Positions 37,681 through 62,289 of a stretch of DNA of 64,000 nucleotides are shown here, piece after piece; positions within the stretch are counted from its first letter, which is position 1; every line of letters begins with the position of its first letter. The notes under the pieces are model-generated. The model had not been told where the DNA came from. It was given only the letters and a program-made list of their open reading frames with translations, and did not search any database. Source of the DNA: Methanococcus vannielii SB (GTDB lineage: Archaea; AGJL01; Methanococci; Methanococcales; Methanococcaceae); contig NC_009634.1 in NCBI RefSeq assembly GCF_000017165.1, forward strand, positions 1,612,001 through 1,676,000. Direction: 5' to 3'. The translations under genes and the position numbers were made by a program.

Positions 37681-37765
37681 GCGGAGATGGCCCAGTCTGG
37701 TACGGCGCGGGACTGCTAATCCCGTTACGCTCTGCGTAACCCGAGTTCAAATCTCGGTCTCCGCG
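37681..37765 (+). tRNA. tRNA-Ser(GCU)
   Basis: An 85-base type II tRNA. The acceptor arm GCGGAGA pairs with TCTCCGC; anticodon stem CGGGA/TCCCG holds loop CTGCTAA with anticodon GCT, reading AGC/AGU serine codons. A long variable arm (TTACGCTCTGCGTAA) and a T-arm CCGAG-TTCAAAT-CTCGG follow. The discriminator is G and CCA is not encoded. A T7 run follows as terminator. The 3' part serves as the integration site of the element to its right and is restored intact by the inserted copy. Confidence 0.97.
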
Positions 37766-37769
37766 TTTT
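37713..37769 (+). repeat. attL core, 57-bp direct repeat in tRNA-Ser
   Basis: From the anticodon loop (CTGCTAATCCCG) to GTTTT past the tRNA end, these 57 bases recur without mismatch at 52216-52272. This is the mark of tyrosine-integrase insertion into a tRNA 3' half. Two 10-bp direct repeats CGAACTGTTA (37847-37856 and 37860-37869) just inside the element may be arm sites. Confidence 0.93.
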
Positions 37770-37772
37770 TTT
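37766..37772 (+). terminator. T-run terminator of tRNA-Ser
   Basis: Seven T residues directly after the discriminator base, the common archaeal signal for ending stable RNA transcripts. The first four T are part of the duplicated attachment core. Confidence 0.6.
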
Positions 37773-37914
37773 AACTTTGCGAAATTTTAGTGAAATAAAG
37801 CTTTTTTGTGGTTTTTTAAGATAAGTTACATTACAGGATTTAGTCCCGAACTGTTATTACGAACTGTTACGGGGCAACTTTCAGGACTTATGAACTTTGC
37901 TATCGGGGGTAACT

Positions 37915-39033
37915 ATGGCAGATATAAAAACACATTTGAGGGAACTTAGTGTTATTGCAGGCATATTGTATACAATATCTGAAAAGAATATTAATGAGCT
38001 GTATCAAATGCACCCCAAAGACTTTTTTAAATATTTATCCTCAAAAATTTCAAATGACATTTCAAATGCATCAAATATTACCTATCTACCAGATTTTAAC
38101 AATTACAAGTCTATAATGTGTAACGGTATAAATTTGGGGAAAAAAATAGTTGATTTGGGCATCGTTGATGATTATACTAAGATATATTGGTTGGGATCCG
38201 ACTCACAAAAAAATGACCCTGTTGACCTTAAAGTTGGAAACACTGGTTTTTCATTAAAAGAGGAGAGTTATATTCTTGAAAACATGGGGTTATATAAATA
38301 TTTGAATACGATGACAAATTCCAAGTTTGAGCGAGGTTTACATATTTTTGAAAATTTTGCAGAAGCAGAATATGCAAAATGGTTTGAATATACGTGGAAT
38401 AGTATGTTAGGATGGTTAAAAACAAATAACAATATTTGGTCGTTAACAAAGAATGATAAAACTTCAGAAATTAAAATAGTGAATTCGGAAGTACAATTTA
38501 TTATCAACGGTACCGTAATTTCAAAGTTACCTAATAGAAATATATCTGTTAAAGAATATATTGAACACACTGATTCCAAAAGCCGGGAAAAAGTGTTTTC
38601 AAAGTGGATTAATTCAAAATTTAAAAAAGACAAAAAATATATTGATTTAAAGAATATCTGTTCTCAAAAAGCAGGTTCTGAACTTTGCAACTATATATCT
38701 CGTAATTATAATCCCGTAGGCCTTGCTAGATTTCTACAAATTTATGAAAATGGATATTATTATGCAAAAACTACTGAAAAAGATATTGAAATATATTATG
38801 TGCCCAGCATATCGGAATTTGAAAAAGATATTGAAATTGATAAAATAGAATATAGTATTCCTAAATCACAGTTAAATATCATAACAACAGTTAAAAATAA
38901 AATTACTGGAAATTCTTTAGAATTTAGAAATGAATGTAGATTTAGCCACGGTCAATTCAATGGAACACCCGAAGCAAAAATGTATTATGGAAGGAATACG
39001 GATTTATCAGATATTTATGAAAAAAAATATTAA
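37915..39033 (+). CDS. Type II restriction endonuclease (predicted)
   Basis: About 372 residues from the ATG at 37915, preceded by CGGGGGTAA. A PD-(D/E)xK-like arrangement is suggested by DPVDLKVGNTGFSLKEES (about residues 101-118). The strongest evidence is context: the gene ends one base before the 3' end of a convergent cytosine-5 methyltransferase gene. The outline resembles HaeIII-type enzymes of methanogens, but I cannot assign the recognition site. It would cut unmethylated foreign DNA. Confidence 0.7.
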   Translation: MADIKTHLRELSVIAGILYTISEKNINELYQMHPKDFFKYLSSKISNDISNASNITYLPDFNNYKSIMCNGINLGKKIVDLGIVDDYTKIYWLGSDSQKNDPVDLKVGNTGFSLKEESYILENMGLYKYLNTMTNSKFERGLHIFENFAEAEYAKWFEYTWNSMLGWLKTNNNIWSLTKNDKTSEIKIVNSEVQFIINGTVISKLPNRNISVKEYIEHTDSKSREKVFSKWINSKFKKDKKYIDLKNICSQKAGSELCNYISRNYNPVGLARFLQIYENGYYYAKTTEKDIEIYYVPSISEFEKDIEIDKIEYSIPKSQLNIITTVKNKITGNSLEFRNECRFSHGQFNGTPEAKMYYGRNTDLSDIYEKKY

Positions 39034-39034
39034 A

Positions 39035-40141
39035 TTAGCTTTTTTTATTTTTCGTCAAAGTATGGTACAATGCCCTTGCAATATGCCACCCTAGTATCGG
39101 TGGAACAGCATTACCAATTTGTTTATATGCTTCAGATGCAGAAAATGGAAAATTAAAATCATCCGGAAACGACTGCAATCTTGCACATTCTCTAACACTT
39201 AATCTTCTCCAATACCCCATATCTTCAGGATCTTCATTATTATATGACCTATAGTGGGCTTCGATGTTTCCATGATGTTCAGCCCGTATTGTGATTGAGG
39301 GGCGATCTGCCAATATTTTATAATTACCTTGCATTTTTTTACCGGGGTAAAATTTAGCTTTAGAATAATCTTTTGAAGAATGATTAAATACCTCTTTTGA
39401 GTCTATTTTATCCCATAAATCGTCAATGGCTTCTTTTGACGTCATCCATTCAAAAAGTCCTTCATTACCCCTAACGGGTTTAGGATACATTATGTCCCCA
39501 ACATAATCATTCCTGATGCCCATTATTATTACCCTTATTCTAGTTTGGGGTACTCCATAATCTGCAGTATTAAGTACTTTATAGGCTACTTGGTAGCCCG
39601 AGTCCATAAAATCTTTTAGGATAATGTCTAAGGCAGTAGTATCTTTTCCTTTAGAATTCGTTCTAATTCCGTCTACATTTTCAGCTACAAAAGCAATAGG
39701 TTTAATATAATCAATTACTCTTTTCATTTCTAAGTAAAGTCTACCTCTTTCAGCAGAAAGTCCTTTTCTTTTTCCAGCATGACTAAAATCTTGGCAAGGG
39801 AATCCCCCTATTACAATGTCTGCATTAGGGATATCTTCATTTTTTATATCCTTTATGTCTGCACAAACTGAAGAATGGCAAAAATTACTTTCATAAGTTC
39901 TGCATGCTTTATCCGATATATCATTAGAAAATATTATTTCATAGGGGTTATGTTCATAATGTTGTTTAAATATTTCAAAACCGCCTTTAAAACCCAAATC
40001 CATTCCACCACAACCACTAAATAACGAAATAACTTTAAATTTTTTGGCATAGTTAATGGGTTTCATAGTGTCAACTAATTTAATATTTTCTGTACTTATT
40101 AATTTGCCTTGATTTTTATGTATTTCATGGGATTTTTTCAT
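39035..40141 (-). CDS. DNA (cytosine-5)-methyltransferase
   Basis: About 368 residues from the ATG at 40141, with GGTGA upstream. All main motifs are present: ISLFSGCGGMDLGF (I), GGFPCQDFSHAGKRKGL (IV, catalytic Cys), VAENVDG (VI), RIRVIIMGIR (VIII), and QIGNAVPPILGWHIAR (X). The target recognition region lies between VIII and X. It methylates the sequence cut by the convergent endonuclease and so protects the host. The integrase gene is 43 bases upstream on the same strand. Confidence 0.95.
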   Translation of the reverse strand: MKKSHEIHKNQGKLISTENIKLVDTMKPINYAKKFKVISLFSGCGGMDLGFKGGFEIFKQHYEHNPYEIIFSNDISDKACRTYESNFCHSSVCADIKDIKNEDIPNADIVIGGFPCQDFSHAGKRKGLSAERGRLYLEMKRVIDYIKPIAFVAENVDGIRTNSKGKDTTALDIILKDFMDSGYQVAYKVLNTADYGVPQTRIRVIIMGIRNDYVGDIMYPKPVRGNEGLFEWMTSKEAIDDLWDKIDSKEVFNHSSKDYSKAKFYPGKKMQGNYKILADRPSITIRAEHHGNIEAHYRSYNNEDPEDMGYWRRLSVRECARLQSFPDDFNFPFSASEAYKQIGNAVPPILGWHIARALYHTLTKNKKS

Positions 40142-40198
40142 CAAATTATTCACCAAAAATTATTCTAAATATGCTCATTACTGTATAGTACATTTTAA

Positions 40199-41167
40199 TT
40201 ATAATATTTTTTGAATATTTTTAATCATTTTTTCCTTTCTTTCCTTTGAATGAGAATAGAAAAGAGTTGTATCAAGTGATTTATGACCTAAATATTCTTT
40301 TACAATATCTATTGGTTGCCCCTTTTCAAGTAAATCAACAGCTCTGCCGTGTCTCAATGAATGAACAACGACTTTTTTGTTTGCTGGAATCCTTCCTTCT
40401 TTTTTCAATCTATCGACAGCTTTTCTAAAAATTTCCCCAATCCATCCCCTTCCGATAGGTTCTCCATCAGAATTTTGAAATAGCTTATCTTTAGATCCTT
40501 TTTTGACATTGTACTGGACGTAGTAGTTTATTACATCCAATGTATCTCTTGAACATACAACTGTTCTTTCAGCATTCCCTTTAGTATTTCTTAAAACGAA
40601 TGTTCCTTCTTCAAGGTCTGAATCCCCGTATGTTAAATTTAGAGCTTCAGAAATTCTACATCCTGAATCCCAAAGAAATCGGATAATTGTTGCATCCCGG
40701 ATTTTGGTTCTGCTTTTACTTTCAACAACGATATTTATTATGTCGTTTAAAAGTTCTGACGAAACCGCATCGTAGTGCTTTATTTCAAAACCTGAGAACC
40801 GTTTTCGCTCTTGGCTTTCTTCTTTAAAGTCTTTAAAGTTTTCAAGTCGCATGAGCCTGTAAAAGACCTTTAAAAGTTGGTAGTATCTATTTTGGGTATT
40901 TCTTGAAAGTTTTCTTTCCCGTTCCAAAAAGTTAAAAAATTTTACAAAGTCGGCATTTGTAAGTTCGTTAGGGGACTTTTCAAGCCGTTCAAGTACGAAG
41001 TTTAAAAATACTTTCAATCGGGTTATATCGTTTCCAATTGTTGATGTTTTAATTCCGTCAAATTCTCTTTCTTCTTTAAACTTGTTGAGCCATTTTTTAA
41101 GCTCAGGCGGTTCTTTTGAAACTTCTTTTCGAGGTTTTAAGAGCAGTTTATTTTTTAGGTCATTCAT
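40199..41167 (-). CDS. Tyrosine recombinase, E1 integrase
   Basis: 322 residues. A core-binding SAM-like domain (about 20-115) precedes the catalytic domain. The catalytic set is visible: R171 (CRISEAL), K196 (NTKG), H269 and R272 (HSLRHGRA), H295 (LGHKS), Y304 (FYSHS). It is expected to act on the 57-bp tRNA-Ser core. It has the same length as, and about 65% identity by my hand count to, the enzyme at 55373-56341. Its start overlaps the preceding small gene by 8 bases. Confidence 0.95.
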   Translation of the reverse strand: MNDLKNKLLLKPRKEVSKEPPELKKWLNKFKEEREFDGIKTSTIGNDITRLKVFLNFVLERLEKSPNELTNADFVKFFNFLERERKLSRNTQNRYYQLLKVFYRLMRLENFKDFKEESQERKRFSGFEIKHYDAVSSELLNDIINIVVESKSRTKIRDATIIRFLWDSGCRISEALNLTYGDSDLEEGTFVLRNTKGNAERTVVCSRDTLDVINYYVQYNVKKGSKDKLFQNSDGEPIGRGWIGEIFRKAVDRLKKEGRIPANKKVVVHSLRHGRAVDLLEKGQPIDIVKEYLGHKSLDTTLFYSHSKERKEKMIKNIQKIL

Positions 41168-44607: not shown

Positions 44608-47196
44608 TCACTTTAAAGCGGGATTTTTATAATAATATGTATTTTCAATAAATAGATTAATTTTTTCAATAGAAATCTCGTCAAGTTGAGTAAATGCTCT
44701 TAGTTTCGGGATTCTAGTTATTTTTTCATATAGTTTCGGGCCTTCTCCAGACGGCAGGTGTGAAGCTATTTCTTTTATTAGTAATTCACTGAGTCCACTA
44801 ATTAAAAATCCACATTCGGGCTCATTTAACTCAGATATTATTTTTGAAATTTGGAGGAAATTACCGTGATGTATATTTAATATTTCATGTTTGATATTGT
44901 CATACTTGATTTCTTTGAATTTTTGATATGTATTAAATGGGGCAATGGACGCTAGATACTGTTCAACAAGTAAACTATATTTTTCAAGTATGTTTTTGTT
45001 AATATCATGCAAATATTTTGCATTTTGATTAATATATGGGTCAGATTTATCATCTATGCCTGTTAATATCGTTAAATGTTCTGGAGGAGTAATTTCACGA
45101 AGGTTGAGTTCAGCATATACATTTTTCATGTCTTTTTTTAACAATGTTAACGTTGCACCAATATTGACTCCCGAAAGATCCTTTACATTTTTCATACAGT
45201 CCAAAATGAGGTCATGGTCAATATTTTCCAATATAAAAAGCATCTGTTCTTTGTTAATTCCCGAAAGAATGGCTTCAATCGTCTCAAAATGTTTAACCTC
45301 ATCAAAAGTATAGAGTTCATTGATAATTTCTACCAATTTGTTATTTTCAAGATATTCAAAATCTAAATTTATTAATTCGTCAGGGGAATAAACATCAGTT
45401 AACCGATCATTTTTATTTTTAGATCTTCTAATTATTTCGTCAATAACCAGATATGAATCATTACTTTTTTTCAAAGAATTTATTAAAATATGAGTATTCA
45501 TTATGAGGTCATCGCTAGTTGGTGAAAATAAGTCATGTAATCCCCTAACGATTTGTCCTGAAATATACTTTTTTGAATAGTGTTTTACATGTTCTAATGA
45601 ATAAATAAGCCCATTTGCAATTATTGTTCTATTTTTCGGAGGTACTCGATATAGTGAGTTGCCGTTATTTTGTAATTTTAGGATATACCGTTCTAGACGA
45701 TCACTTTTTGATAATTTGTGCAAAAAACCTTCAAAATCTTTTTCAGTGAGTCCTTGTTTTTTATATAATTCTAATTCATACGTCTGAAATTCATGTTCTG
45801 ATTTACAATACATAAAATAATTGTTGAATGAGTTTTCCCCGTAAATCCTGTTTTCAGGGTTTCCGTCACGTGTATCAAGTATTGCAAATTCTTTAATTGC
45901 AGAATTAGGAAATAAAACGGTTAATAATTGATAAACATCATCTGCATCGATCGAACGGTAATTTTTCAAGTATTCGTTGATTTTATTTTTGTAATATTTA
46001 TGATCGTATCCCGAACCACCTAATACGCACGTTCCATCAAATACAGAATAACCTACAAAAAGTTCTTTATTATGTTTTACCCAATCGTAAATTTCGGGCG
46101 TAAAAACTTGCAAAGCAGTTAAAACAATTAAATCTATTTTATTAACTTGATTTTTTAGAAGATTCCAATTAAAATTAAAAATAGAGATATATCTATTCAC
46201 ATCTCGAATATTTTTGATCATGTTGCTAAAGCACAAGGGATAAAATTCAAAGTATTGGGGTATATCTCGAGGATTTTCTCCAATTATATTTTTTATTTCT
46301 TCTTCCAAAATGTTTTCTAAATCTAATGTATGGGGTTCAGGCATTTTTATTGGAAATTGTATAATTTTTTCAAGATAGTGCATCCCATATCCATTTTGAT
46401 GATTTTCTAAAGCATTAGATACAATTTTTTCATCAAATGATAGGACGTAAGTTATATTTTTAAAATCAGCAAGGCATTTTACAAGATGGAGTATTTGACC
46501 GATTTCTCTGTCATTCAGTCTATCCATGTCATCCATAATAACCAAGATTCTGAATGGCAAGTTTTCGAATTTTTTGTCTAATTTCTTTTTTACGGTTACG
46601 ATGTCGGTAGGTTGTCTGTATCCCTTCAATATTACGGATAAACATTTAGTGATTATTTTTCCAATTGTGACCGTAATTGTAAGGATTGGATTCAGTGTAA
46701 TGAATTCAGGACTCATTTTTTCTAAATATTTATCAATACTAGATACCAATCCCCACATAACCCCAAAAATTTTTCCAATCCAATCTTTTATATTTTCTAA
46801 TATGGATTGACGTGTTTTCAATGATTCCGAAAGACATTTAAAGAAATTTAATATTAAATCATCAGTTTCCGTAAAATACCACGGATTAAATTTTATAGTA
46901 AGCATATTACATTTTTCAATTCTTTTGAGTTTTATAAATCTTTTAATTCGGTTTTGTTTAGAATTTTTGCATTCATTAATTTTTTCTTTAAAATCATTTT
47001 CTAGAATTTCCAAAGATTTATCAATCGAAAAGGATTTCCCTGAACCCCATGATCCATAAAGTCCAACAACAAATCCATTTTTTTCATTATCTTGCCAGTT
47101 CATTATTTCTGCAAGACTTTTATGAAATCCTTCTCTTTCAAGAAGGTCTTTTTTTTCAGGATTGTTTATCTCCATTAAAATATTGTTATTTCCCAA
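44608..47196 (-). CDS. KAP-family P-loop NTPase
   Basis: 862 residues. Walker A GLYGSWGSGKS (about 45-55), then hydrophobic segments between the A and B motifs (FGVMWGLVSSI, LTITVTIGKIITKCLSVIL), as in KAP NTPases, and Walker B RILVIMDDMDRL (about 215-226). The C-terminal 450 residues are helical and not recognised. KAP proteins are membrane-associated and several are linked to exclusion of phages. The TTG start follows GAGGGGGGGG. The gene starts 27 bases after the MCM-N gene ends, so the two form an operon. Confidence 0.88.
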   Translation of the reverse strand: MGNNNILMEINNPEKKDLLEREGFHKSLAEIMNWQDNEKNGFVVGLYGSWGSGKSFSIDKSLEILENDFKEKINECKNSKQNRIKRFIKLKRIEKCNMLTIKFNPWYFTETDDLILNFFKCLSESLKTRQSILENIKDWIGKIFGVMWGLVSSIDKYLEKMSPEFITLNPILTITVTIGKIITKCLSVILKGYRQPTDIVTVKKKLDKKFENLPFRILVIMDDMDRLNDREIGQILHLVKCLADFKNITYVLSFDEKIVSNALENHQNGYGMHYLEKIIQFPIKMPEPHTLDLENILEEEIKNIIGENPRDIPQYFEFYPLCFSNMIKNIRDVNRYISIFNFNWNLLKNQVNKIDLIVLTALQVFTPEIYDWVKHNKELFVGYSVFDGTCVLGGSGYDHKYYKNKINEYLKNYRSIDADDVYQLLTVLFPNSAIKEFAILDTRDGNPENRIYGENSFNNYFMYCKSEHEFQTYELELYKKQGLTEKDFEGFLHKLSKSDRLERYILKLQNNGNSLYRVPPKNRTIIANGLIYSLEHVKHYSKKYISGQIVRGLHDLFSPTSDDLIMNTHILINSLKKSNDSYLVIDEIIRRSKNKNDRLTDVYSPDELINLDFEYLENNKLVEIINELYTFDEVKHFETIEAILSGINKEQMLFILENIDHDLILDCMKNVKDLSGVNIGATLTLLKKDMKNVYAELNLREITPPEHLTILTGIDDKSDPYINQNAKYLHDINKNILEKYSLLVEQYLASIAPFNTYQKFKEIKYDNIKHEILNIHHGNFLQISKIISELNEPECGFLISGLSELLIKEIASHLPSGEGPKLYEKITRIPKLRAFTQLDEISIEKINLFIENTYYYKNPALK

Positions 47197-47223
47197 AATT
47201 CCCCCCCCTCTTTATGTAAGTCT

Positions 47224-47964
47224 TTATTTTTCATCTTCAATTTTTTCTGCATATATTCCTTTGATTATGATATCAAATACGCCAGTTTTTTTATTCGGTC
47301 TTAAATACGGGATCCCAATGATTCGGAAAATTCCGTTATATATCCCAGGTGAATTTTTTAATATTATTTCTTGTTCTATATTCGAAGTACTTTTTGATAA
47401 AAACTCTTTATTAATTGATATTAAGGTTAATTCTTGAAAATCTTCGTATTTAGATTCACTCTGCATAAGAAACATTTTTTGACTACATTTTGGACAAGTT
47501 CTTTCCAAACTGGTTTCAAAAGGATTTTCAATTTTAAATATGGCCGAGTTTCCACAAGTTGTACATGTCAATGCTAAATTTGTAATTCCAGAAACAATTT
47601 TCTTTGTACTTTTAATTTTTCCGTCAATTTCAATTAATTTTCCAACATGGCAGGTATTAATTTCGTGAATCTCTATTTTGGATAGTAATTCTTTAGGAAT
47701 ATTTTTTATACTGGCCGTTATATTTATTCTTTCACAGTTATAGTCCCAAAATGCTTCATTGTAACATTTTTCAAGTAGGCAAATCCCTTCATCAGGGTAA
47801 TTTATAATATATTCTAAAATGGCATTACCTAACGGAGATTTATGGAATAAATCGTTTAAATCCATAGTAACTATGTTTTTTTCTTTTGTTAAGTTTTCAA
47901 AATGAAATTCTTTTAAATAACTGATAATTTCCGGTTCAAAATTTAAAGTTTGACTATTCCGCAC
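47224..47964 (-). CDS. Orphan MCM N-terminal domain protein, no ATPase domain
   Basis: 246 residues that match the complete MCM N-terminal region: an alpha-helical A subdomain (MDLNDLFHKSPLGNAILEYIINYPDEGICLLEKCYNEA), the OB fold entry HVGKLIEIDGKIKSTKK, a zinc ribbon CTTC...CPKC, SKYEDFQELTLISI, and the closing strands (FRIIGIPYLRP, FDIIIKGIYAEKIE). Normal archaeal MCM helicases then run about 400 residues more into an AAA+ motor; here the gene stops, and a KAP NTPase follows instead. The GTG start has ATGGTGAGAA upstream. It may bind DNA or the host MCM hexamer. Confidence 0.78.
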   Translation of the reverse strand: MRNSQTLNFEPEIISYLKEFHFENLTKEKNIVTMDLNDLFHKSPLGNAILEYIINYPDEGICLLEKCYNEAFWDYNCERINITASIKNIPKELLSKIEIHEINTCHVGKLIEIDGKIKSTKKIVSGITNLALTCTTCGNSAIFKIENPFETSLERTCPKCSQKMFLMQSESKYEDFQELTLISINKEFLSKSTSNIEQEIILKNSPGIYNGIFRIIGIPYLRPNKKTGVFDIIIKGIYAEKIEDEK

Positions 47965-48093
47965 ATTCTCACCATAAAAATAATAGTTAAAATAGTGGCG
48001 ATTTATATATTAATTATTATCTAAATTTAAAAAAGAGTAATTTCAATAAAAAATATTTTAAAATAGTTTATTTTGGGGTAGTTAAATGGTATT

Positions 48094-49038
48094 TTAATCA
48101 ATATATCCCAACGCTACAAGATTTAATAATAAATTTTCAACTTCTTCTCCACTATTTAATTGGATAAACGTATATTGGTAATATGGATAAGGTTCCGAGT
48201 TTGGGTACAATTCCCTACAAAATTCAATTCCTGATGGCATTTTTATATTGTATTTTTTAATATCTTCATGACTGTATAATATATCTATAAATTCATTAAT
48301 TCGAATACTTTCTTCCTTATAAATTGCGGTTTTTAAAACCCATTTTCCAGCACTATCCTTAAAATATATCTTTTTCAGCTTTAGTGCCTCTATCATCCAT
48401 TTTAATCGATTATCTTTAATAAATTTTAAATAATTTTTGTATTTGGTCTGATCCGGTTTTTTCGGCATTTTTTCTATTTTTGAGTCGATTATATCTTTTA
48501 ATTTTTCAAAATATTTGTTTTCTAAATTTTTAAATTCCTCACGGTACGAAAACATTTTTGCCATGTCCCGGGAGTAATCGCTCCATTTTGGTGTTACGAC
48601 TGATTCAGCCGTTTCATTTTTAATAATTTTTGCAATTTTTAACATGTCCCTATGATACAGGTCTAGTGATTTTGAAGTGTTTCCTAGTGTTCCAATTCCA
48701 TTTTTTGCTAAAAAGTATAAAATATACCATTTAGAAATTTTAGCGGAGTTATCGAGTATTTTTTTCAAATTTAATTCAATATCTTCAAGAGTTTTCCAGG
48801 GGCCCGTTATATCTTGAACGACGTCAAAAATTTTAAGTCTTTTTTCAAAAAATGTTTCATCATCAAAAAAATAATAATATAATTTATTCATTAAATAATT
48901 AAATTCCTCAGCATCCTTATTTCTGCCATTATTAACAGATTCCTTGTAATGTATTTCCCAATAAGATTTTGGGGTCCAAATATCATTTAGGTCTGTTTTT
49001 TTAATTTCTTCAAGGTACTTAAGATATTTTTTCTCCAA
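48094..49038 (-). CDS. Hypothetical protein in the E1 cargo block
   Basis: About 314 residues, helical and rich in Lys, Tyr and Trp. I chose the TTG at 49038 because GGGGGAGG lies just upstream; the ATG at 49077 has no ribosome site. The C-terminus (EEVENLLLNLVALGYID) is helical. No motif is recognised. It lies upstream of the MCM-N/KAP pair on the same strand and could be a third member of that unit. Confidence 0.6.
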   Translation of the reverse strand: MEKKYLKYLEEIKKTDLNDIWTPKSYWEIHYKESVNNGRNKDAEEFNYLMNKLYYYFFDDETFFEKRLKIFDVVQDITGPWKTLEDIELNLKKILDNSAKISKWYILYFLAKNGIGTLGNTSKSLDLYHRDMLKIAKIIKNETAESVVTPKWSDYSRDMAKMFSYREEFKNLENKYFEKLKDIIDSKIEKMPKKPDQTKYKNYLKFIKDNRLKWMIEALKLKKIYFKDSAGKWVLKTAIYKEESIRINEFIDILYSHEDIKKYNIKMPSGIEFCRELYPNSEPYPYYQYTFIQLNSGEEVENLLLNLVALGYID

Positions 49039-49236
49039 ATTATCCTCCCCCACACTATCCGCTAATAAAATGAACATTGTATATTAATAAAACTTATTTT
49101 TGGTGCATTTAATATTATTGGTTAAGTTACAACATAACCGGACTAACAAAAAGAAATCATTACTTAAAAATATATATTGTAGAGTAAATAGTTCAAAGAC
49201 TGACAAAAATATGCCGAATACCGCAGGGGTGGAATT

Positions 49237-49872: not shown

Positions 49873-51159
49873 TCATTTTAAATGTTTATTTCTAAATTCT
49901 TCATAAATTATGGGCCTTATTTTTCTAAATTCGTCTAAATTTTGCCTGTTTTCAATATCCCAATTTCCGGCAGTAATATATCTTAACCATTCCGGAGTAC
50001 TGGCTTTAACTTTTCTTACTCTTAAATCGTATTCAAAAGGTTCAAAGAGTTTAATTTTTGAATCAGAAGGATCAACTATCCAAACTTTTAAATTTTCATT
50101 TCTAACCATCGCATTATACAATCGGATATTAACATGTTCATCGCAGAAGCTGTATCCTACAACTATTATTTCGTCTAAATTATCTAATATCTGGTCGATC
50201 AAAGCTAATTTTTCTTCGCCCGGTTTTGGATTTACTGTTTTACTAAATTTATGACCGCCCATTTTAATTGAATTTCTTAAAAACTGGATTTCCCCGTCCA
50301 TACCACTTACAGATAATTCATTAAGGGTATTTATTTTCAATCCATTAAAAAAATATTTCATTTCAGTTTTCTTGGATACTATTTTAAGGTAATCAAGGGC
50401 AGTATCTGAATTTTTAATGTCCAACTGAATTATAGTTTTACCCTCTTCAATATTATCAAAATCTCCATAAGAAAATTCGTTAATTGCACCATGTAATTTG
50501 ATAAGATTTACCCCTTTACCACTTTTTATAAAGTTCATGTTTTCTAAACTTAAATCTTTACGGTCAACTGATCCAAATTCGAGTGTATTTTCAAAGTTTA
50601 AATTTGAAATTGGAAATTTTACTTTTGAAACAGACCCAAAACTAAGGGGGATCTTATTATCAATACACAAAAATTCAATTATGAGGTCATGATTTAATGA
50701 TATAACCCATAATGGATCTTCACCAATAAACTTGCTAAAATCTTTGTAAAAATGCTTGTTTAGATGGTAAATTGGAAAATAGTGTATATGGTAAGCATAA
50801 AATAGATATGAAATAATGTCTAAAATCTTTCCACGTGTATATTCACAAGTAAGCCGGTATTCTTTAGAAATGTCATGTGAACGGATTATATCTTCAATGT
50901 CTTTTAAAAATTCTTCGTAATTTAATGAATTGTTACATTTATGTTTTTTAAATAGTTCTGCAATGTCAAATAGTGCTTTTGAATCAGTTGGATTATCTTC
51001 GCCGTAAGGCTCATGTTTAGACCATGAATTAATATGATCTTTTAAACGAGTATTGTTATAAAAAAAGAAAAAATCTTTTGATACGTCATTAGCAAGGGGT
51101 ATTCCTAAATCATATGAAAAACCCGCCCCTATCAACAATCCTTTTCGAATTTTAACCAC
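49873..51159 (-). CDS. SIR2-like domain protein, probable defence effector
   Basis: 428 residues. The SIR2-like NAD-binding outline is clear: GLLIGAGFSYDLGIPLAND (about 7-25), WVISLNHDLIIEFLC, LIKLHGAINEFSYG, IIVVGYSFCDEHVNIRL, and VWIVDPSDS. Proteins of this type in defence islands deplete NAD+ on phage infection (Thoeris ThsA, DSR and short-Ago systems). No partner of those systems is adjacent. GTG 51159 lacks a spaced ribosome site; AGGGTGG stands 5 bases before an in-frame ATT, so the true start may be that ATT. Confidence 0.85.
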   Translation of the reverse strand: MVKIRKGLLIGAGFSYDLGIPLANDVSKDFFFFYNNTRLKDHINSWSKHEPYGEDNPTDSKALFDIAELFKKHKCNNSLNYEEFLKDIEDIIRSHDISKEYRLTCEYTRGKILDIISYLFYAYHIHYFPIYHLNKHFYKDFSKFIGEDPLWVISLNHDLIIEFLCIDNKIPLSFGSVSKVKFPISNLNFENTLEFGSVDRKDLSLENMNFIKSGKGVNLIKLHGAINEFSYGDFDNIEEGKTIIQLDIKNSDTALDYLKIVSKKTEMKYFFNGLKINTLNELSVSGMDGEIQFLRNSIKMGGHKFSKTVNPKPGEEKLALIDQILDNLDEIIVVGYSFCDEHVNIRLYNAMVRNENLKVWIVDPSDSKIKLFEPFEYDLRVRKVKASTPEWLRYITAGNWDIENRQNLDEFRKIRPIIYEEFRNKHLK

Positions 51160-51916: not shown

Positions 51917-52215
51917 TTTTTCACGAATAATTAGTACTTATCTATCATATTATTTTTTTAGTATATTAAAATAGTTGTTTTTATTTTAAAAATGTTTTTT
52001 GAACTATTTTTAACTTTTTAATTAATTTAACCTTTCAAAACACAAATCCTGTAAGGTATGACTAAAATTTAACTCGTCCTCGTGCATTTCCTTCGTTATT
52101 TTTAGTAAATGGCATAAACTTTTAAATCGGTTTTTTTAACTAAGTTATTTTAAGTTAATATGGCTTAAAATAAGCTTATTTTTATTAAATTTTAATGTGG
52201 GGTCATATTTCCGGT
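51917..52215. other. E1 right-end non-coding DNA
   Basis: Between the last E1 gene and the attachment repeat. A 10-bp perfect inverted repeat TTATTTTAAG/CTTAAAATAA (52145-52154 with 52164-52173) sits about 45 bases from the core and may be an integrase or excisionase site. No ORF is supported. Confidence 0.5.
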
Positions 52216-52272
52216 CTGCTAATCCCGTTACGCTCTGCGTAACCCGAGTTCAAATCTCGGTCTCCGCGTTTT
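52216..52272 (+). repeat. attR core, truncated tRNA-Ser copy
   Basis: A perfect 57-base copy of the 3' part of tRNA-Ser(GCU), from the anticodon loop to the T-run. The 5' half of a tRNA is absent, so it is not a working tRNA gene. It marks the right junction of E1 and at the same time the left edge of the next element-like region. Confidence 0.95.
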
Positions 52273-52503
52273 CTTTTTTGAGTAATAAATTAAGTTAGAA
52301 AACTTAACTTTTATCAAAATTTTTTCGGTTTAACGACGGGACTAAATACTGTCTTTATTTTAGTCCTATGTATTTTTGAAATACAGTATTAGTTTTTGAA
52401 AAAATTAAAGTATTTTTTTAAAATATTCACGTTTGTAAATACTGGTTTTTAAAACTCGTGAGGTTTTCAGACTTTTTATTCCAAAGGAATATTTTGGTAG
52501 GCC

Positions 52504-52613
52504 CGTAATAATACAATCAAAACATAGTAATAATATTTGTAACCAAGATGTAACCAGAATGTTTAAAATACGTTAAATCACGTATAAAAAATAGGCAAAA
52601 TACGACAGTCAAA
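52504..52613 (+). repeat. 110-bp imperfect direct repeat, left copy (R1)
   Basis: This aligns without net length change to 62059-62168. The last 50 bases differ at only four positions by my count, and the first 17 at one; the middle needs small shifts. It contains AAATACGTTAAATCACGTAT and ATACGACAG segments shared by both copies. It lies about 230 bases right of the attachment copy. Confidence 0.75.
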
Positions 52614-52740
52614 TTTGATAACTGACTTTATGAATACCGCTAATATAAACACAGCTAAATAAAATACCAATATTAAATGCGTATTTTTCATAATTTTTTT
52701 ACAAATTTTTTTCTTTTACTCACGCTTACTGATTTTTTTG

Positions 52741-53164: not shown

Positions 53165-55363
53165 TTATTCTAATTTTTCCTGGATTGGTCTTTCAATTAG
53201 TTTATACAGGTACTCTTTTGGTTTTACAACAATCTTTCCAACCATGTTTTCAAGTAATTCGAGAGATTTTTCTTTAGGTATTCCATGTGCGAGTTCTAAT
53301 TTTAATGTAATTTCTGCTTCATGAACATGATCTTTTTCTTCCTGGAATTCCTTCATCGTATCAACAATGATTTCACTTATGATCTGGTCATCGGGATGTT
53401 CAGTAAATTCTTCAGTTATTGGAATCCAAACTGCTTTTTGTGGTTTCTTTGTTCCAAGAACCCTTGTTGCTTTAACTTCAAAACCATGCGCGTTAAATTC
53501 AGAAAGCGTTTTTATTCCCGTATCGCCAAGTTCAATAAAATTCAATCCTTTTGCAGTTAAAACAATGTGATAATTCTCAATTTTATCTTTTTTAATGTAA
53601 ATTCCGTATTTTTCAAGCTGCTTTACTCCAACAAAATAATTGGCTCCTTCTGGCTCTGCAATGTAGTCTAAAATGTTGTATTTGATACCTGATTCAACCC
53701 ATTCAGATAATTTTAAAACTTCTTTAATGACTGATTTCTTAACTGAGTCTTTTGAAGTGTAGATATTGCTGTTTCCATAAACTATCGTTTTTGATGGTTC
53801 ATATTCAAGTTCAAACTCTTTAAAGATAAATTTTGCAATCTCTCGTCCAATCATTATGACGTTATCGTTTGCATTTTCCCTTGAAGAATCAAATTCCAAT
53901 GTATCAACATGTTCTTTGATTTTTTCAATATTTTTGTAGATATACGCCCCTAAAAGTGGCATTTTATCTAATAATTTGTTTCCAATCTGTTCATTATTAA
54001 CTAAATCATAATCATAAGCACTTAAAACAATAAACCTGTCAACGAGTGCAGGATCAAACTCTCTAAACTGGTTTGTTGATATAATAAATGGCCTTCTTAA
54101 AAGGAAGTTATAGTCTTCTTTTTCGGTTTCCTTATTTCCCCTTGTAATTATTGCTTCGTCTTTTGTACCAATCTGTTTTAAAATATCAACAAGTCTTTCT
54201 GGAAATTCTTTTAATTCATCAAACCACATTGGCAAGTTTACATACTGCTCTTTTGCAAGTTTTGCAATACTTCCCTTTAAATCGTCATTTGAATAGGTAT
54301 CTGTTGTATTTAGGAGTAATTTATTAAATACAATGTTCATTCTCGCAGTTTTTCCAATTCCCTGTTTTCCAATAATTAAAAGATATGGAAATTTGTCAAG
54401 TCTTTTTGTCTTTCCAGTTTCTTTGTTTAAGAGATCATACCTAAAGAGTGATGACAACGAATATTCAAAAATTATTTTTGTAAAGTCTTCAGCTCCAAAG
54501 TATTCTTTAAGAAGCTCTAAAGTATCTTTAATTTCATCTCGTTTGTATTTCATTGAAAGCATTTTTTTAAAATCTCTTGCTCTCAAACTTTCTTTTTGTA
54601 ATTCCCAACCGTTTAATATAATCTTATCTTTTCCGTAGTATCCATAAGCTACGGTTCGTTTGATAACTTTCTTTGTGTCATCATAACGCTTTATAATGTA
54701 GTCGTAAATCCTTCCGTATTCATTTAAAAATTTGATATAGTTGAAATTCCCTGAAGGTTTTACTGCAGTAATAAAATTATCAAAATAACTTATTTCGTCG
54801 TTTAAATCGATTTCATTATCCTTAATAATTAATTTCTTCTGGGTTTCGAATGTTCTTCCGTTAAAGTATGTAACGTTTTCAATTTTTGGTTTTGTATATG
54901 CTGCAATTGCTTTAGAATCTTTAATTCTGTCTCCTTCATCTCGAATTAAATATTCTATTGCGTAAAGATTTTTTATTTCATTAAATTCTAAATTCCTTGA
55001 TTCTTCACAGATTTCTTTAAAGAGGCTTCTTTCGCTTATTTCTACAGTTCCTTCGAGTCCTTTGAATTCAACTTTCACTCCAGGTATTTTCAAAGTTTTG
55101 TAAACACGATGATAGATTGATGTAAGATCACTACCTTTTGGGAAAACTTCTAAAATATGTTCTTTTTTAAGCTCGTATTTTTCTGAAAATTCGTCCAAAT
55201 CAAAGATAAATATATTATCAACGACTTTCTTTTCAGCTGCGTATTTTTCAGATAAGTCCCAAACTTTTTCTATTAATTCTATACGTTTTGCACTTTTTTC
55301 TGCTAGTTCCTTTTGGGCTTCTTTGATAAGTACATCTTTTTGCACCTGGCTTATGCTCCTCAT
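53165..55363 (-). CDS. Large AAA+ ATPase, probable element replication helicase
   Basis: 732 residues. Helical N-terminus, then an ATPase core: Walker A LLIIGKQGIGKTARMNIVF (about residue 330), Walker B LPMWFDELKEFPERL, sensor-type IISTNQF, and an arginine-finger-like ALVDRFIVL. The C-terminal 250 residues include winged-helix-like parts. The layout resembles superfamily 3/primase-associated helicases of plasmids and viruses, but I see no primase active site. It is the last gene of an eleven-gene operon and ends next to the iterons. Confidence 0.7.
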   Translation of the reverse strand: MRSISQVQKDVLIKEAQKELAEKSAKRIELIEKVWDLSEKYAAEKKVVDNIFIFDLDEFSEKYELKKEHILEVFPKGSDLTSIYHRVYKTLKIPGVKVEFKGLEGTVEISERSLFKEICEESRNLEFNEIKNLYAIEYLIRDEGDRIKDSKAIAAYTKPKIENVTYFNGRTFETQKKLIIKDNEIDLNDEISYFDNFITAVKPSGNFNYIKFLNEYGRIYDYIIKRYDDTKKVIKRTVAYGYYGKDKIILNGWELQKESLRARDFKKMLSMKYKRDEIKDTLELLKEYFGAEDFTKIIFEYSLSSLFRYDLLNKETGKTKRLDKFPYLLIIGKQGIGKTARMNIVFNKLLLNTTDTYSNDDLKGSIAKLAKEQYVNLPMWFDELKEFPERLVDILKQIGTKDEAIITRGNKETEKEDYNFLLRRPFIISTNQFREFDPALVDRFIVLSAYDYDLVNNEQIGNKLLDKMPLLGAYIYKNIEKIKEHVDTLEFDSSRENANDNVIMIGREIAKFIFKEFELEYEPSKTIVYGNSNIYTSKDSVKKSVIKEVLKLSEWVESGIKYNILDYIAEPEGANYFVGVKQLEKYGIYIKKDKIENYHIVLTAKGLNFIELGDTGIKTLSEFNAHGFEVKATRVLGTKKPQKAVWIPITEEFTEHPDDQIISEIIVDTMKEFQEEKDHVHEAEITLKLELAHGIPKEKSLELLENMVGKIVVKPKEYLYKLIERPIQEKLE

Positions 55364-55372
55364 TTTCCCACC

Positions 55373-56341
55373 CTATAAAATCTTTTTAATTTGATTTAGC
55401 ATTTTTTGCTGTCTTTCCTTAGAGTGGGAGTAGTATAGCGTAGTTTCAATGGACTTGTGACCGAGGTACTCTTTTACAATATCAATTGGCATACCTTTGT
55501 CCAGGAGATCTACTGCTCGACCATGTCTTAAACTGTGGATTACTACTCTTTTGTTATCCTGAAGTTTTCCCTTTTTCTTTAATTCTTTGACCGCATTTCG
55601 AAAAACATCGCTCGGACGGTTTCTTTTTAATGGTTCGCCCCTATAGGTTTGGAATAAGTTGTCTCCAGGGTTTTTCTTAATATTTGCTTTTAAACAGTAA
55701 TTTACAAAATCTAACGTGTCTTTTGAGCAGGTAACGATTCTTTCTTCTTTTCCTTTGGTGTCTCTTAATCTGAATTCCCCTTTTTCTAAATCACTGTCCC
55801 CATATTTTAGATTCAAGGCTTCAGAAACTCTTGCACCCGTATCCCATAAAAACCGGATTATCATTGCATCTCTAACTTTTGTAGTGCTTCTTGATTCTAG
55901 AACTTCCATTAAAATCAAGTTTAAAATGTCTGCGCCTAATGAATCGTAATGCTTTATTTCAAAACTCGAAAATCTTTTCCTATCTTCACTTTCATTTTTA
56001 AAGTCGTTTAGGTTTTCGAGTCTCATTAGTTTGTAAAACACTTTTAAAACGTCGTAGTATCTTTTTTGGGTATTTCTTGAAAGTTTCCTTTCGTTTTCAA
56101 GGTAATTGAAGAATCTGACAAAGTCCGAGTTTTCCATATCATTCGGTTCTTTTTCGAGCCGTTCGTATCCAAAATTTAAGAATACTTTTAAACGGTTGAG
56201 GTCCCCTTCGATAGTACTTTCTTTTATTCCGTCAAATTCTCGTTCTGAAACGTATTTATCAATCCATTTTTTTAATTTGGGCGTTTCTTTGATTTCTTCT
56301 TTTTTCGGATTTAATAAGATAAGATTTTTAATATTTTGCAT
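55373..56341 (-). CDS. Tyrosine recombinase, E2 integrase
   Basis: 322 residues, same length as the E1 integrase. By hand, 210 of 322 positions are identical in an ungapped alignment. The catalytic set is conserved at the same numbers: R171, K196, H269, R272, H295, Y304. It probably uses the same tRNA-Ser core, which would explain two elements side by side. It lies 9 bases upstream of the ATPase gene in one operon. Confidence 0.95.
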   Translation of the reverse strand: MQNIKNLILLNPKKEEIKETPKLKKWIDKYVSEREFDGIKESTIEGDLNRLKVFLNFGYERLEKEPNDMENSDFVRFFNYLENERKLSRNTQKRYYDVLKVFYKLMRLENLNDFKNESEDRKRFSSFEIKHYDSLGADILNLILMEVLESRSTTKVRDAMIIRFLWDTGARVSEALNLKYGDSDLEKGEFRLRDTKGKEERIVTCSKDTLDFVNYCLKANIKKNPGDNLFQTYRGEPLKRNRPSDVFRNAVKELKKKGKLQDNKRVVIHSLRHGRAVDLLDKGMPIDIVKEYLGHKSIETTLYYSHSKERQQKMLNQIKKIL

Positions 56342-62058: not shown

Positions 62059-62168
62059 CGTAATAATTCAATCAAGTATGGATAATAACTATATGACTAA
62101 AATGTGACCAAGATGTTAAAAAATACGTTAAATCACGTATGAAAAATAGGTAAAATACGACAGCCAAA
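62059..62168 (+). repeat. 110-bp imperfect direct repeat, right copy (R2)
   Basis: Counterpart of 52504-52613, offset 9,555 bases. See the left copy for the alignment. Being just outside the DUF2283 gene, it may hold that gene's promoter or mark the right edge of E2. Confidence 0.72.
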
Positions 62169-62289
62169 ATTTTGTTAAATACGGATAAAATGAATAGTAT
62201 TAAATAAAATCTTTATGTTACGTGCTTGTTTTACATAAGTCTTCTATCATTTTAATTACCTCAAGATGAAAATATTAAAAAAGAAATAA

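What the first reader, a model, noticed from the sequence alone, without database searches (positions are those of the whole stretch)
44608..47964. Orphan MCM N-terminal domain paired with a KAP NTPase: candidate new defence or replication-control system
The 246-residue protein has the complete MCM N-terminal region (helical subdomain, zinc ribbon, OB fold and closing strand) but stops where the AAA+ motor should begin. The next gene, 27 bases on, is a membrane-type KAP P-loop NTPase. KAP proteins are associated with phage exclusion (family knowledge). A decoy or sensor that binds ssDNA, or joins the host or viral MCM hexamer, and signals to a membrane NTPase would be a new design (inference). 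The pair lies in the cargo block of an integrated element with a SIR2-like gene and R-M genes.
Basis: partly seen in the sequence, partly recalled or inferred. Interest (0 to 1): 0.85.

Follow-up and report, generated by a model that had tools for sequence, protein, structure and literature searches.

The report
Motorless helicase piece beside KAP ATPase
A mobile DNA element in a methane-making archaeon carries a DNA-helicase subunit that has lost its motor, next to a phage-exclusion-type ATPase gene; the helicase piece is real and belongs to a scattered class of motorless MCM proteins, but its partnership with the ATPase was found only once, so a dedicated defence system is not shown.

Summary
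Window 47224-47964(-) encodes a complete MCM N-terminal domain with no motor. A PifA-like KAP NTPase gene starts 27 bp downstream. Both lie inside a 14.5-kb integrated element bounded by a 63-nt tRNA-Ser repeat.

It is not a fresh truncation. The protein is only 33-37% identical to its closest full MCM clade and keeps all four zinc cysteines. It has lost every conserved residue of the loop that talks to the motor (0/17, against 45/74 elsewhere, p=2.5e-6), while equally divergent full MCMs keep that loop. It has also lost MCM's ssDNA-binding residues, which argues against an ssDNA sensor.

It is unique among 36 Methanococcales genomes, was not found elsewhere, and the KAP orthologue in a sister genome stands alone.

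Motorless MCM-N proteins are themselves a recurrent kind. Four haloarchaeal ones are published. I found a haloarchaeal plasmid family co-located with another ATPase-like gene, a 245-residue Halorussus family, fusions to NucS and HsdR nucleases, and two more.

Most likely it is an element-borne MCM-ring competitor or adaptor, co-expressed with an exclusion ATPase. The mechanism is inferred, not shown. New variant of a known kind.

The parts
47224..47964 (-). Motorless MCM: helical subdomain, C2-C2 zinc ribbon and OB fold; 246 aa, GTG start
44608..47196 (-). KAP-family P-loop NTPase, PifA-like, 862 aa, TTG start (start supported by the aligned G019 homologue)
   Evidence: Pfam KAP_NTPase 8e-40, PADLOC PifA 5.2e-52, 54-56% identical homologue L040
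47197..47223 (-). 27-bp intergenic gap; holds the G8 run (47201-47208) that is the likely ribosome-binding site of KAP
   Evidence: Sequence; homopolymer
47997..48015 (-). TATA-like box (AATTAATATATAAATCG) upstream of MCM-N, suggesting a two-gene transcript; weak in this AT-rich DNA
   Evidence: Read directly; inference
37710..37772 (+). Left attachment repeat, 3' part of tRNA-Ser(GCT)
52213..52275 (+). Right attachment repeat, 97% identical, 63 nt
40199..41167 (-). Tyrosine integrase of the element
   Evidence: Pfam Phage_integrase 7.9e-31
39035..40156 (-). C5 cytosine DNA methyltransferase of the element
   Evidence: Pfam 3.2e-78
49873..51159 (-). SIR2-like gene of the element
   Evidence: PADLOC Aga_SIR2 2.5e-11 over a short C-terminal stretch
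48094..49077 (-). 327-aa protein of unknown family upstream of MCM-N, 130 bp away and probably a separate transcript
   Evidence: No hits in Pfam, PADLOC or NCBIfam

Best explanation
An element-borne MCM subunit without a motor acts through protein contacts. It enters or competes for MCM N-tier rings (host, or MCM brought by rival elements and viruses) and marks or blocks MCM-driven replication. The PifA-like KAP ATPase made from the same transcript is the exclusion effector, which can also work alone. SHOWN: domain content, loss of motor, specific loss of the motor-coupling loop, loss of ssDNA-binding residues, retention of the zinc site and of the aromatic at the hexamer interface, location in an integrated element, 27-bp spacing. 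INFERRED: co-transcription, ring entry, any contact between MCM-N and KAP, and the exclusion phenotype.
For: 1) ACL loop (residues 182-201): 0/17 conserved residues kept, against 45/74 elsewhere. The equally divergent full-length paralogues L008 and L009 keep 9/15 and 10/16 there. 2) All four zinc cysteines and the core QE...SPGIYxG are kept; Y173 stands at the PfMCM F179 hexamer-interface position. 3) Basic positions at PfMCM K129 and R186, kept as K/R in nearly all Methanococcales MCMs, are V124 and T180 here; R124 is S119 (PMC3970758). 4) All four M. maripaludis MCMs co-purify, and element MCMs have been proposed to enter host rings (PMC3984812). 5) MCM-carrying invaders are common in archaea: M. 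fervens plasmid and MFTV1, haloviruses, and a viral contig with MCM beside a related integrase. 6) KAP matches PifA, an F-plasmid exclusion protein triggered by phage proteins (PMC8594841).
Against: The pairing occurs once; the G019 KAP orthologue stands alone. No complex prediction or experiment was possible. No second copy of the orphan exists, so selection on it could not be measured directly. Its tree placement rests on a very long branch (3.12).
Confidence: 0.42

Rival explanations
1. The MCM-N belongs to the element's own replication or copy control (dominant-negative subunit or recruiter of host MCM) and is beside KAP only because both are cargo; KAP is an independent PifA-like exclusion gene.
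For: KAP orthologue stands alone in G019. Haloarchaeal plasmids carry MCM-N-only genes directly behind a different P-loop-like ATPase gene, with a topoisomerase-like gene downstream in the one locus scanned. No full MCM gene was seen in the element.
Against: 27-bp spacing with its own upstream TATA-like box fits one transcript with KAP.
Confidence: 0.33
2. A decaying relic of an element-encoded MCM with no present function.
For: Single copy; very long branch; loss of ACL and ssDNA-binding residues.
Against: Intact ORF with a good ribosome-binding site. Zinc cysteines and OB core are kept while only the motor-facing loop is erased. The same pattern occurs in families kept across several genera. 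The protein ends exactly at the domain border.
Confidence: 0.15
3. A ssDNA sensor that signals to a membrane KAP NTPase.
For: OB fold is present and the NT-hairpin keeps lysines.
Against: Residues at the ssDNA-binding motif positions are not basic (PMC3970758). KAP has at most one weak membrane segment.
Confidence: 0.07

Closest known systems
Haloarchaeal MCM N-domain-only 'outlier' proteins (Kristensen et al. 2014, PMC3972481)
   Same: MCM N-domain without AAA+; those examined here are plasmid-borne; motor-coupling loop shortened or eroded; function unknown
   Different: 312-315 aa with a C-terminal tail that may be the MCM winged helix (hhalign E 5e-5); directly behind an ~800-aa ATPase-like gene, not KAP
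PifA of the F plasmid (KAP NTPase; T7 exclusion)
   Same: KAP P-loop domain; PADLOC PifA model 5.2e-52; carried by a mobile element
   Different: PifA has no MCM-N partner; exclusion not tested for this protein
Mobile-element MCM helicases of Methanococcales (Krupovic 2010; Walters and Chong 2010, cited in PMC3984812)
   Same: Closest sequence relatives are Methanococcus MCMs; element-borne
   Different: Those are full helicases with a motor
MCM-N/nuclease fusions found here (L074 NucS_C; L110 HSDR_N)
   Same: MCM N-domain coupled to something other than its own motor
   Different: Fusion to a nuclease rather than a neighbouring NTPase gene; L074 partly keeps the ACL loop

Membership tests
MCM replicative helicase | N-domain with helical, zinc and OB subdomains | tested here: met
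MCM replicative helicase | AAA+ motor with Walker A/B and arginine finger | tested here: not met
   ORF ends before the motor; 27-bp gap, then KAP
MCM replicative helicase | Allosteric communication loop | tested here: not met
   0/17 conserved positions kept
MCM replicative helicase | Basic ssDNA-binding (MSSB) positions | tested here: not met
   S119/V124/T180 at PfMCM R124/K129/R186
MCM N-domain-only proteins | MCM-N without motor, intact ORF, on a mobile replicon | tested here: met
MCM N-domain-only proteins | Neighbourhood of the haloarchaeal plasmid family (ATPase-like gene directly upstream) | tested here: not met
KAP/PifA exclusion ATPase | KAP P-loop domain with Walker A (GSWGSGKS) and Walker B (IMDDMDRL) | tested here: met
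KAP/PifA exclusion ATPase | Transmembrane segments within the P-loop domain | tested here: inconclusive
   One borderline segment 171-189; AF2 model poor there
KAP/PifA exclusion ATPase | Excludes phage or plasmid | not testable with these tools
   Needs an infection or transformation assay
Dedicated MCM-N/KAP two-gene system | Pair conserved in more than one lineage | tested here: not met
   One of 36 Methanococcales; no other adjacency in 46 genomes checked for KAP and MCM; none in the plasmid regions read

The most novel reading that the evidence does not exclude
The MCM N-tier is a detachable module that archaeal mobile elements repeatedly separate from its motor and couple to other effectors (KAP ATPase here, an ATPase-like gene on haloarchaeal plasmids, NucS and HsdR nucleases in fusions) to recognise and interfere with MCM-driven replication. 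The KAP pair would be an MCM-sensing exclusion system.
Probability: 0.2. Interest if true: 0.85.

Novelty: new variant of a known kind. Interest (0 to 1): 0.52.

Why it matters
Motorless MCM proteins are a neglected class of unknown function. The loop-loss signature gives a sequence test for 'MCM N-tier used without its motor', and the nuclease fusions and ATPase neighbours suggest concrete partners. If they act on MCM rings, they would be a way for archaeal elements to control or attack replication by the archaeal/eukaryotic-type helicase.

Tried and rejected
Recent truncation of a host MCM: rejected (33-37% identity at best, no motor remnant). Conserved MCM-N/KAP pair in Methanococcales, other archaea, plasmids, phages, viral contigs: not found. 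Six KAP relatives from the genome collection (L044-L049) had no MCM-N nearby. Apparent short MCM-N ORFs in G562, G454 and G405 end at contig edges and G031 is a broken full MCM; set aside. KAP structure prediction was too poor to use (pLDDT 63). The ATPase-like partner on haloarchaeal plasmids has no Pfam or PDB match; its P-loop (PRxGKDST) is read by eye only. Genomes with only one MCM_OB match were not checked for short ORFs one by one, because weak matches were cut from the list.

Full report
WHERE IT IS. The window lies in a single-contig genome of 1,720,048 bp. From memory this is the length of the Methanococcus vannielii SB genome. The searches place it in an order with 36 held genomes and multiple MCMs in most of them, consistent with Methanococcales.

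OBSERVATION. The 246-aa ORF at 47224-47964(-) is a complete MCM N-domain: MCM_OB 4.6e-12, aligned to 1LTL over residues 17-245. AlphaFold2 gives pLDDT 83.8 with the helical bundle, zinc subdomain and OB strands. Foldseek's best PDB matches are PfMCM and MthMCM N-domains (1.4e-17). In alignment with 30 full-length Methanococcales MCMs it stops right after the last OB strand, where full MCMs run on through a linker into the AAA+ motor. The KAP gene begins 27 bp downstream. Its TTG start is supported by alignment with the G019 homologue. A GGTGA motif precedes the MCM-N start and a TATA-like box lies about 40 bp upstream (read by eye), so the two genes are probably one transcript; this is inference.

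THE ELEMENT. A 63-nt, 97% identical repeat of the 3' part of tRNA-Ser(GCT) lies at 37710-37772 and 52213-52275. It bounds a 14.5-kb element with an integrase, a C5 methyltransferase, KAP, MCM-N and a SIR2-like gene. A second element with its own integrase (55373-56341) follows directly.

NOT A RECENT TRUNCATION, AND NOT SIMPLE DECAY. Identity to any full MCM is at most 37%. The tree puts it with the Methanococcus L007/L010-L012 clade (97/98) on a very long branch of 3.12, so placement is tentative. All four zinc cysteines and the core QE...SPGIYxG survive. The block called the allosteric communication loop (ACL), which projects from the N-domain towards the ATPase domain (PMC3970758), is erased: 0 of 17 conserved positions kept, against 45 of 74 elsewhere (Fisher p=2.5e-6). 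Two full-length paralogues of the same genome with the same overall divergence, L008 and L009, keep 9/15 and 10/16 in the loop and 42/72 and 43/70 elsewhere. The loss is therefore specific, as expected for a protein that no longer serves a motor.

DNA BINDING. PfMCM binds ssDNA mainly through R124 and R186, with K129 contributing; these are the MSSB motif. The orphan has S119, T180 and V124 at these places. Methanococcales MCMs keep a basic residue at the K129 and R186 positions nearly throughout. The ssDNA-sensor idea is therefore unlikely. The aromatic at the PfMCM F179 hexamer interface is kept as Y173, so ring entry remains possible.

KAP. The KAP protein hits Pfam KAP_NTPase (8e-40) and the PADLOC PifA model (5.2e-52), and more weakly QatA. 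PifA of F is an exclusion protein; T7 sensitivity to it depends on phage Gp1.2, with some role for Gp10 (PMC8594841). Only one borderline hydrophobic segment was found, so 'membrane' is not established.

IS THE PAIR CONSERVED? No. Among 36 Methanococcales genomes only this one has an intact MCM-N-only ORF. A 54-56% identical KAP in G019 has its own start and no MCM-N nearby. Among 46 genomes checked for both domains, no other KAP lies next to an MCM domain; the nearest are about 30 kb apart, in G218 and G023. More than 1,000 plasmids carry related KAP genes; the two KAP plasmid regions read had no annotated MCM. Phage and viral collections gave no pair.

MOTORLESS MCM IS A RECURRENT KIND. Kristensen et al. 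2014 (PMC3972481) list four haloarchaeal MCMs of 312-315 aa made of the N-domain only, function unknown. I found: (i) their family on eight haloarchaeal plasmids. In seven it lies 0-6 bp behind (or overlapping by 1 bp) a conserved ~800-aa protein with a P-loop-like PRxGKDST motif, and in the locus scanned a topoisomerase-like gene follows. The C-terminal tail resembles the MCM winged helix weakly (hhalign E 5e-5, probability 67%). (ii) A 244-248-aa family on Halorussus megaplasmids before a PadR-type regulator. (iii) MCM-N fused to NucS_C (407 aa, G216), the only such fusion listed among 227 genomes of its phylum, and MCM-N fused to an HSDR_N nuclease domain in Haloglomus. (iv) A 260-aa copy directly upstream of a full MCM in G218, whose ACL is eroded while its neighbour's is intact. 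(v) A 266-aa ORF in G415. In most of these the ACL is shortened or eroded; the NucS fusion and G415 partly keep it, and most full MCMs, including divergent element-borne ones, keep it. Loop loss after motor loss therefore looks convergent, though I did not test it with a formal model.

MECHANISM. I commit to a motorless ring subunit that competes with or tags MCM rings, co-expressed with an exclusion ATPase (0.42). In M. maripaludis all four MCMs co-purify, and element MCMs have been proposed to take over replication through mixed complexes (PMC3984812). Invaders in archaea often bring MCM. The nearest rival is that MCM-N serves the element's own replication control and KAP is independent cargo (0.33). 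No interaction has been shown.

NOVELTY. The protein type is known from haloarchaea. What is new is the KAP neighbour, the 246-aa form ending at the OB fold outside haloarchaea, the specific loop loss, and the fusions. I did not find these in the papers searched, which are only part of the literature.

Noticed in passing
L112 1628-4924, also L113, L115, L116, L118, L121, L124 (haloarchaeal plasmids): Conserved operon: ~800-aa protein with a P-loop-like PRxGKDST motif, no Pfam family, ending 0-6 bp before or overlapping an MCM-N-only gene.
   Followed up: partly
L074 991-2214 (-): MCM_N + MCM_OB fused to a NucS_C endonuclease domain (407 aa), the only such fusion listed among 227 genomes of its phylum.
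   Followed up: partly
L110 3968-5461: MCM-N fused to an HSDR_N nuclease domain on a Haloglomus plasmid, annotated only as a restriction enzyme domain protein.
   Followed up: partly
L079 1405-2187 (-) / L101 3467-6327 (-): 260-aa MCM-N copy directly upstream of a full MCM; first ~70 residues nearly identical to the neighbour (gene conversion?), motor-coupling loop eroded only in the short copy.
   Followed up: partly
L114, L120, L123, L126: Halorussus megaplasmids share a 244-248-aa MCM-N-only gene before a PadR-type regulator.
   Followed up: partly
window 47201-47208: G8 run (one of 9 separate tracts in the genome) forms the likely ribosome-binding site of KAP; possible slippage control of its expression.
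   Followed up: partly
window 52565-52616 and 62120-62171: 52-nt direct repeat (92%) flanking a second element with integrase 55373-56341 and an AAA ATPase gene 53165-55363.
   Followed up: no
L128 4764-8221: Viral contig with a full MCM beside an integrase resembling that of the window's element.
   Followed up: no
window 37897-39033: 378-aa ORF without Pfam match beside the C5 methyltransferase; candidate restriction enzyme.
   Followed up: no
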